A stretch of 36,527 nucleotides of DNA from positions 1 to 36,527 of the forward strand of contig JAMCSX010000018.1 of assembly GCA_023379055.1 (NCBI GenBank). The letters are read 5' to 3'. The notes below the pieces were generated by a model. That model made no database searches. It was not told the origin of the DNA and was given only the letters and a program-made list of their open reading frames with translations. The position numbers were made by a program, and so were the translations under genes. Origin of the DNA: Candidatus Martarchaeota archaeon. Its GTDB lineage: Archaea; Micrarchaeota; Micrarchaeia; Micrarchaeales; CABMGC01. This document shows, piece after piece, positions 36,121 to 36,527 of this stretch (position 1 is its first letter; every line of letters begins with the position of its first letter).

Positions 36121-36372
36121 ATGGGGAGAAAGCTGCTGGACGATGCAAAGTCGCTATACGAGCTGTACCCGGATTGGCATGCTGCACGCGGCGTCGCAAT
36201 TGAGGAAGAGGATAACGTATCCCTATCTGCAATACAATGGCAGCCACGATAGGAACTAAAACTTCTGTTGGAAAACATACGGCCAAGCACGCAATATCGT
36301 TTCGTTCAACGTGCAAAAGTAACTCTCCTTGCAGCGAGAGGGATGTCAAACGAAAAGATAGCAAAAAGGTCG
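36121..36372 (+). pseudogene. N-terminal remnant of an IS630-type transposase, truncated
   Basis: In one frame from the ATG at 36121 the sequence reads MGRKLLDDAKSLYELYPDW and, before an in-frame TAG at 36250-36252, VSLSAIQWQPR. The same frame continues ELKLLLENIRPSTQYR and FVQRAKVTLLAARGMSNEKIAKR. The last part closely follows the helix-turn-helix start of IS630-family transposases (R-x-RIxLLAAxGxSNxEIARR). Similarity stops at 36366, exactly where a hairpin-rich block begins, so the gene has been cut by another insertion or deletion. The rest of the transposase is not seen. The first codons to about 36205 are not clearly part of the family. Confidence 0.6.
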
Positions 36373-36490
36373 GTTTATCACTGTGGGCGTAAAACCCACA
36401 GTCTTTAGACCGACATAATTGATTTCTCCTCCTAGCACCTGACGCCGCAACAAGTCAGATAATGTTGCGGCGTGATGTATAAACAGGTGC
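36369..36490 (+). ncRNA. Candidate structured noncoding RNA in front of an IS110-like ORF
   Basis: Two strong stem systems fill this block. The first is GTCGGT (36369-36374) with ACCGAC (36409-36414), enclosing CTGTGGG (36381-36387) with CCCACAG (36395-36401). The second is GCACCTG (36435-36441) with CAGGTGC (36484-36490), enclosing the perfect 10-bp stem ACGCCGCAAC (36442-36451) with GTTGCGGCGT (36464-36473), a 12-base loop, and a one-sided 10-base internal loop. The block ends four bases before the ATG at 36495. Placement fits a left-end bridge RNA of an IS110 element, but a transposon-end hairpin or a TnpB-type right-end RNA are alternatives. Expression cannot be judged. Confidence 0.4.
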
Positions 36491-36494
36491 AAAC

Positions 36495-36527
36495 ATGGAA
36501 ATAGCAATAGACCTCGGAAAGTGGAAG
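36495..36527 (+). CDS. Probable IS110-type transposase, N-terminal fragment cut by window end
   Basis: Only 11 codons are visible: MEIAIDLGKWK, open at the right edge. A start with hydrophobic-hydrophobic-I-D-x-x-K-x-K is the usual opening of IS110/IS1111-family DEDD recombinases, where the aspartate is the first catalytic residue. It sits right behind a structured leader and next to a broken IS630 gene, which fits a mobile element. A sugar-kinase or RNase-H-fold protein could also begin this way, so the call is tentative. Confidence 0.45.
   Translation, partial: MEIAIDLGKWK

What the first reader, a model, noticed from the sequence alone, without database searches (positions are those of the whole stretch)
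36369..36527. Structured RNA leader directly before an IS110-like transposase: candidate bridge RNA
About 120 bases between the broken IS630 gene and the ATG contain two nested stem systems, the second with a perfect 10-bp stem, a 12-base loop, a one-sided internal loop and a 7-bp closing stem. IS110-family elements are known to express a guide (bridge) RNA from their noncoding left end, with loops pairing to target and donor DNA. If MEIAIDLGKWK begins such a recombinase, this is a candidate guide RNA in a small archaeal genome, and the loops can be tested against the insertion site in the IS630 fragment.
Basis: inference. Interest (0 to 1): 0.68.

Follow-up and report, generated by a model that had tools for sequence, protein, structure and literature searches.

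The report
Structured leader of RNA-guided archaeal transposon
The folded RNA at the end of this window is not the transposon's guide RNA, which lies at the other end of the element and whose sequence matches where each copy has landed, but a conserved hairpin in front of the transposase gene that probably keeps the enzyme's translation low.

Summary
The stems are real. The window ends inside the left end of an IS110-family, IS1111-type insertion sequence of a Micrarchaeota genome. The two stems belong to different things. Stem 1 (36369-36410) is the end hairpin of a TnpB (IS200/605) element, which is the insertion target. Stem 2 (36435-36490) is the element's own 5' leader. The leader is not the guide RNA: it stays nearly constant while targets change, and it shows no match to the flanks (p 0.22-0.89). 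The guide RNA is in the right end, beyond the window. Its two target strands match the left flank (p 1e-5) and the reverse complement of the right flank (p 2e-5) of each copy. Its donor strand changes together with the element's right end, natural empty sites support it, and one prediction about a high-copy element (TGGRCGTA) was made before looking and came out correct. The leader hairpin recurs in front of this transposase in about 30 copies and has compensatory changes in 7 of 10 pairs. In the window's clade it buries the ribosome-binding site completely. The best reading is a translational brake like the ISPpu9 5'-UTR. Its invariant loop, AAGTCAG, is shared with the donor loop of the guide RNA and is unexplained.

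The parts
36369..36410 (+). End hairpin of an IS200/605-type (TnpB) element remnant; the site into which the element inserted
   Evidence: about 29-36 nt shared with L004, L005, L006; L005 hairpin is followed by a TnpB N-terminus, HTH_OrfB_IS605 E 1.7e-11
36403..36410 (+). CTTTAGAC, left half of the target with the inferred core TAG at 36406-36408
   Evidence: Same 8 nt in guide strand 2 of the in-genome copy (L002 GTGCTTTAGACT)
36411..36527 (+). Left end of an IS1111-type IS110-family element; runs off the contig
   Evidence: Copies on C4 and C16 are 99% and 95% identical from about here on; full element read on C4
36418..36429 (+). Subterminal inverted repeat ATTGATTTCTCC
   Evidence: Inverted copy GGAGAAATCAAT at the right end of L028; 12-18 bp near-perfect repeats in most complete relatives
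36435..36490 (+). Leader hairpin of the transposase mRNA: closing stem 36435-36441/36484-36490, upper stem 36442-36451/36464-36473
   Evidence: z -4.28; upper stem 7/10 pairs with compensatory change, covariation 0.390 vs 0.209 shuffled, 0/500; covariance-model score 61.6 bits
36452..36463 (+). Conserved hairpin loop AAGTCAGATAAT; AAGTCAG recurs in the left donor strand of the guide RNA and, inverted, near the right end in some lineages
36485..36489 (+). Shine-Dalgarno-like AGGTG of the transposase gene, buried in the closing stem
   Evidence: unpaired probability 0.00, shuffles 0.31
36495..36527 (+). First 11 codons of the DEDD transposase (MEIAIDLGKWK), cut by the contig end
   Evidence: identical start in L002, which carries PF01548 and PF02371

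Best explanation
The window ends inside the left end of an IS1111-type, RNA-guided IS110-family element that has inserted into the terminal hairpin of a TnpB element. Target choice is made by a guide RNA encoded at the other (right) end. That RNA has a target loop whose first strand is complementary to the right flank and whose second strand matches the left flank, and a donor loop whose second strand matches the element's own right end. In the window's element type the target-loop stem overlaps the last codons of the transposase. The leader described in the finding is a separate RNA: a 5'-UTR hairpin that pairs the transposase ribosome-binding site with CACCT upstream and so most likely holds transposase translation low, including from transcripts that read in from outside. 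Its invariant loop is probably a binding site for a regulator (transposase, guide RNP or another RNA). Shown: family, element ends, guide/flank matches, empty sites, leader covariation, burial of the Shine-Dalgarno motif in silico. Inferred: expression of either RNA, the translational effect, and the role of the loop.
For: Family and catalytic residues. Guide strand 2 vs left flank p 1e-5 and rc(guide strand 1) vs right flank p 2e-5 over 13 diverged elements. With the whole 178-nt right-end segment and no chosen windows: p 2e-5 and 0.0036, the longest match to the left flank falling at segment positions 45-53 in 11 of 13. Donor strand co-varies with the right end: TAGTAG, TAGTTG (L044), TAGTCG (L015), TAGAAG (L036), TAGAAAT (L047, L013). 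Empty sites in the genus of L013 restore GCTTAAATATTTCCTG, read by both guide strands. The inferred empty target CTTTAGCGGTGGGA occurs 31 times in 11 relatives, 0 in the backward control; of 12 instances examined at least 3 adjoin tnpB. Prediction noted (GGCGTAT guide for the G017 high-copy element, whose copies sit at TGGRCGTA) met in its right end: TGGACGTATAACGC. Guide structure covaries: 17/22 pairs, 0/500 shuffles for cells changed on both sides. Leader: covariation, SD unpaired 0.00 in 14 of 22 leaders, compensatory SD pairing in L031 (CACCC/GGGTG) and L047 (CTCACC/GGTGAG). Precedent: ISPpu9 5'-UTR buries the RBS and weakening it raises translation (PMC8450116).
Against: SD burial is not universal: L044, L046, L036/L037 and L022 keep the upper hairpin without fully burying the SD, so the upper hairpin has a further role. 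No expression data. GU versus AC counts do not settle whether RNA or DNA is selected (4 vs 2). Right-flank matches are weak in some elements (L032, L037, L046, L014).
Confidence: 0.72

Rival explanations
1. The leader itself is the bridge/seek RNA, as in the IS110 group, with its loops pairing to target and donor.
For: It is structured, lies in the left end upstream of the transposase as IS110-group guide RNAs do (PMC11187229), and its loop shares AAGTCAG with the donor loop of the right-end RNA.
Against: Leader vs flanks p 0.22-0.89. Same leader core in elements with different targets (L028 and L032; L030 differs by one base). Guide model absent from the last 2.5 kb of the window. A second, variable, flank-matching RNA sits at the right end.
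Confidence: 0.03
2. The leader is a decoy or mimic of the guide RNA's donor loop: the transposase or its RNP binds the AAGTCAG hairpin in its own mRNA and shuts off translation, coupling transposase level to guide RNA supply.
For: AAGTC(A/T), or AAGCCA in L031, at the same structural place in the donor loops and in the leader loops; 7-10 nt identity in most; own-versus-other p 0.011, with L031 (AAGCCAG in both) and L047 (AAGTCAAAAT in both) the clearest cases. Loop conserved in elements that do not bury the SD.
Against: Single-element matches are mostly 7 nt and not significant alone; L044 and L046 differ at the sixth base. No binding data.
Confidence: 0.2
3. The hairpin acts as DNA: a subterminal recombinase site or cruciform, part of an extended inverted repeat between the two ends.
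For: Leader loop motif is mirrored near the right end in several lineages, with co-variation (L044 GTCAGATTAAT in both; inner alignments beat shuffles in L030, L031, L032, L044).
Against: Mirror copy lacks the 3' arm and is absent or not significant in L036, L037, L047, L013, L015, L046, whereas the full hairpin with compensatory pairs is present throughout.
Confidence: 0.12
4. Circle-specific switch: in transcripts from the excised circle the right-end copy pairs with the leader and frees the ribosome site.
For: Complementarity exists; in L047 and L013 predicted SD exposure rises (0.04 to 0.52, 0.20 to 0.49).
Against: In the window's clade the SD stays buried in the folded circle transcript (0.00).
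Confidence: 0.06

Closest known systems
IS1111 family with seekRNA (ISEc11, ISPa11, ISKpn4; PMC11187229)
   Same: DEDD transposase with GL-P----SG motif, subterminal inverted repeats, long noncoding region downstream of tnp, guide strand complementary to the top strand before the strand matching it, one target type per element
   Different: Archaeal (Micrarchaeota, Thermoplasmata); guide stem overlaps the transposase stop in the window's clade; shared core at the junctions is 2-4 nt; structured leader in the left end not found described there
ISPpu9 (PMC8450116)
   Same: IS110-family element whose transposase mRNA 5'-UTR folds over its ribosome-binding site
   Different: There the UTR is 244 nt and is opened by an antisense RNA Asr9; here the leader is about 85 nt and no antisense RNA has been shown
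IS621 bridge RNA (PMC11208160, PDB 8wt6)
   Same: Homologous transposase (E 3e-9), target loop plus donor loop logic
   Different: IS621 RNA is in the left end; here it is in the right end and the left end carries another hairpin
IS4321/IS5075 (IS1111 family, target Tn21-family inverted repeats; Partridge and Hall 2003, cited in PMC11208160)
   Same: Uses the end of another mobile element as its target
   Different: Here the ends of TnpB elements

Membership tests
IS1111 group of IS110 family | DEDD N-terminal domain and C-terminal domain with catalytic Ser in GL-P----SG | tested here: met
   PF01548 2.8e-14, PF02371 1.9e-22; NF033542 189.9 bits; D6, E50, D89, S241 invariant and GLVPRIYQSG
IS1111 group of IS110 family | Subterminal inverted repeats of about 11-13 bp | tested here: met
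   12-18 bp near-perfect in most complete elements, 0-2 of 300 shuffles as good in most; L002 has a weaker one
IS1111 group of IS110 family | Left extension 7 bp, right extension 3 bp beyond the repeats | tested here: inconclusive
   Fits L013 if the AAAT core is split; in others a 2-4 nt core is shared at both junctions
IS1111 group of IS110 family | Guide RNA encoded downstream of tnp, top-strand complement first, top-strand match second | tested here: met
IS1111 group of IS110 family | Guide RNA expressed and bound by transposase; circular intermediate | not testable with these tools
   needs RNA and protein
IS110-group guide RNA in the left end (the finding) | Left-end RNA with loops matching target flanks | tested here: not met
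   p 0.22-0.89 against flanks; guide model absent
ISPpu9-type 5'-UTR control | Ribosome-binding site buried in mRNA leader structure | tested here: met
   in silico only: unpaired 0.00 in the window and 13 other leaders, not in all relatives
ISPpu9-type 5'-UTR control | Opening the structure raises translation | not testable with these tools
   needs a reporter

The most novel reading that the evidence does not exclude
The leader is an RNA mimic of the guide RNA's donor loop, by which the RNA-guided transposase senses its own free level or guide supply and represses its own mRNA: an autoregulatory RNA built from a copy of the guide scaffold.
Probability: 0.2. Interest if true: 0.72.

Novelty: new variant of a known kind. 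Interest (0 to 1): 0.46.

Why it matters
It places RNA-guided IS1111-type transposition in small DPANN archaea and shows natural reprogramming of the guide across many target types, with empty sites and a prediction that came out correct. It also adds a family-wide leader hairpin that may couple transposase synthesis to the guide RNA. It corrects a natural mistake: the structured RNA next to the transposase start is not the guide.

Tried and rejected
Leader as target guide: rejected by permutation tests. Rfam: no family matched the leader or the right end. Viral contigs: no relative. Empty-site pattern TTTAGAC(N0-5)GTGGGAGGATGTCAC: no match, because the core is TAG, not TAGAC; the corrected pattern worked. 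Circle-transcript switch: not supported for the window's clade. RNA versus DNA from GU/AC counts: undecided. Small ORFs in leader or right end: seen by eye, reading frames not conserved. RNAalifold on the right-end alignment missed the outer stem because MAFFT misaligned it; a covariance model mended that. IS630 fragment: no significant Pfam match.

Full report
Observation. The stems are present and far beyond chance. The ATG is at 36495. The contig ends at 36527, 11 codons into the gene.

What the gene is. The copy on contig C4 of the same genome (L002, 331-1308) gives the full protein, with one in-frame TAA at codon 180. It carries PF01548 and PF02371. A 99% identical intact copy (L028, Micrarchaeota TL1-5.bin55) scores 189.9 bits with NCBIfam 'IS110 family RNA-guided transposase', cutoff 140, and matches IS621 and ISCro4 structures by sequence. 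The acidic residues D6, E50 and D89 and the serine S241 are invariant across nine relatives down to 27% identity.

Where the element begins. The DNA search in the genome shows C4 and C16 copies matching only from about 36403-36407 on, while 36371-36410 matches three other places; at two of them (L004, L005) it stands at the end of a TnpB gene. So stem 1 is the target and stem 2 is the element. The insertion is nested: TnpB end, then this element, next to what may be an IS630 fragment (not confirmed).

Where the guide RNA is. Downstream of the gene the complete relatives of the window's clade have about 190 nt of mostly noncoding DNA (shorter in L036, L037 and L015) that folds into a target loop and a donor loop. 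Strand 1 of the target loop is the reverse complement of the right flank and strand 2 equals the left flank. Examples: L030 TTGGCGAAGTCT (12/12) and GTTAGGTT (8/8); L036 TTATTAGACT and GAAATCCTCT (10/10 each); L013 TTAAATTT and AATATTTCCTG (8 and 11). Over 13 elements the match to own flanks beats reassigned flanks at p 1e-5 and 2e-5. Without choosing guide windows, scanning the whole segment, p is 2e-5 and 0.0036, and the best left-flank matches cluster at one position. The guide windows were set by hand; one search is the check on that. The second donor strand follows the element's right end through TAGTAG, TAGTTG, TAGTCG, TAGAAG and TAGAAAT.

Empty sites and a prediction. In the genus of L013 three genomes hold the uninterrupted site, for example GTGCTTAAATATTTCCTGCG (L062), which both guide strands read across the junction. 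For the window's element type the inferred empty target CTTTAGCGGTGGGA occurs 31 times in 11 of 60 relatives and never in the backward control; of the 12 instances examined at least three adjoin tnpB genes, at either end (L134, L137, L144). In G017 seven copies whose left flank I read sit at TGGGCGTA, TGGACGTA or a close variant. I noted beforehand that the guide should contain GGCGTAT; its right-end pieces read TGGACGTATAACGC.

Covariation of the guide RNA. Model R2 finds 21 right ends, including L047 and L013 that were not in its alignment, and 17 of 22 pairs have changes on both sides, 69 cells against 24 in shuffles, 0/500. The alignment is fitted to the model, so these counts lean towards the structure; the inner stems also came out of an unguided fold. 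Folding energy alone is significant for some right ends and not for others (L030 z -0.33). In this genome only C4 1285-1415 matches, and the last 2.5 kb of the window does not.

What the leader is. Model R1 finds the hairpin repeatedly in relatives, and where I read the context it lay just inside the subterminal repeat, in front of this transposase start or a remnant of it. It is absent from more distant IS110-like elements in the set. The 10-bp stem has compensatory change at 7 pairs. In the window's clade the Shine-Dalgarno-like AGGTG is fully paired. In L031 (CACCC/GGGTG) and L047 (CTCACC/GGTGAG) the pairing is kept by compensating change. This is the ISPpu9 arrangement, where weakening the 5'-UTR structure raised translation (PMC8450116). 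Four lineages keep the upper hairpin but not full burial, so translation control by burial is not the whole story.

The shared motif. AAGTC(A/T) opens the leader loop and also lies at one fixed place in the left donor strand of the guide RNA; L031 has AAGCCAG in both and L047 AAGTCAAAAT in both (p 0.011). In several lineages the motif also stands inverted near the right end. A binding site for the transposase or its RNP would explain the first fact; a shared DNA end motif would explain the second. Neither is shown. A switch that opens the leader only in circle transcripts failed for the window's clade.

Comparison and novelty. By gene, repeats, RNA position and strand order the element belongs to the IS1111 group, which PMC11187229 reports to be abundant in archaea as well as bacteria. 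What is new is the archaeal set with natural reprogramming and the family-wide leader hairpin. In the papers held I found no description of either; most subscription journals and preprints are not in that library.

Noticed in passing
L002 868-870 (G000 contig C4): The only full transposase copy in this genome has an in-frame TAA at codon 180; intact relatives exist (L028).
   Followed up: partly
G017, contigs C10, C13, C15, C20, C24, C25, C30, C35, C41, C42, C46, C47: A related element is present in about a dozen copies, those read at TGGRCGTA-like sites, with contigs broken inside it, which suggests recent activity.
   Followed up: partly
L036, L037: Close relatives of the element, with leader and guide RNA, lie in Thermoplasmata MAG contigs (one 150 kb long), which suggests transfer between Micrarchaeota and Thermoplasmata. 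Binning was not checked.
   Followed up: no
L134, L137, L144 and the other places: CTTTAGCGGTGGGA lies next to TnpB genes at either end, so one guide could serve for both ends of the TnpB element.
   Followed up: partly
L043 (G000 contig C17, 122188-122270): Solo right-end remnant of the element without a transposase.
   Followed up: no
L003 (G000 contig C16, from 1501): One copy starts about 210 bases downstream of the archaeal 23S rRNA match; its left flank (AGTACAAGTCC) differs from the TnpB-end target.
   Followed up: no
L051 1325-1466, L053 1327-1488: More distant IS110-like elements (about 30% identical) also match the right-end guide RNA model but lack the leader hairpin.
   Followed up: no
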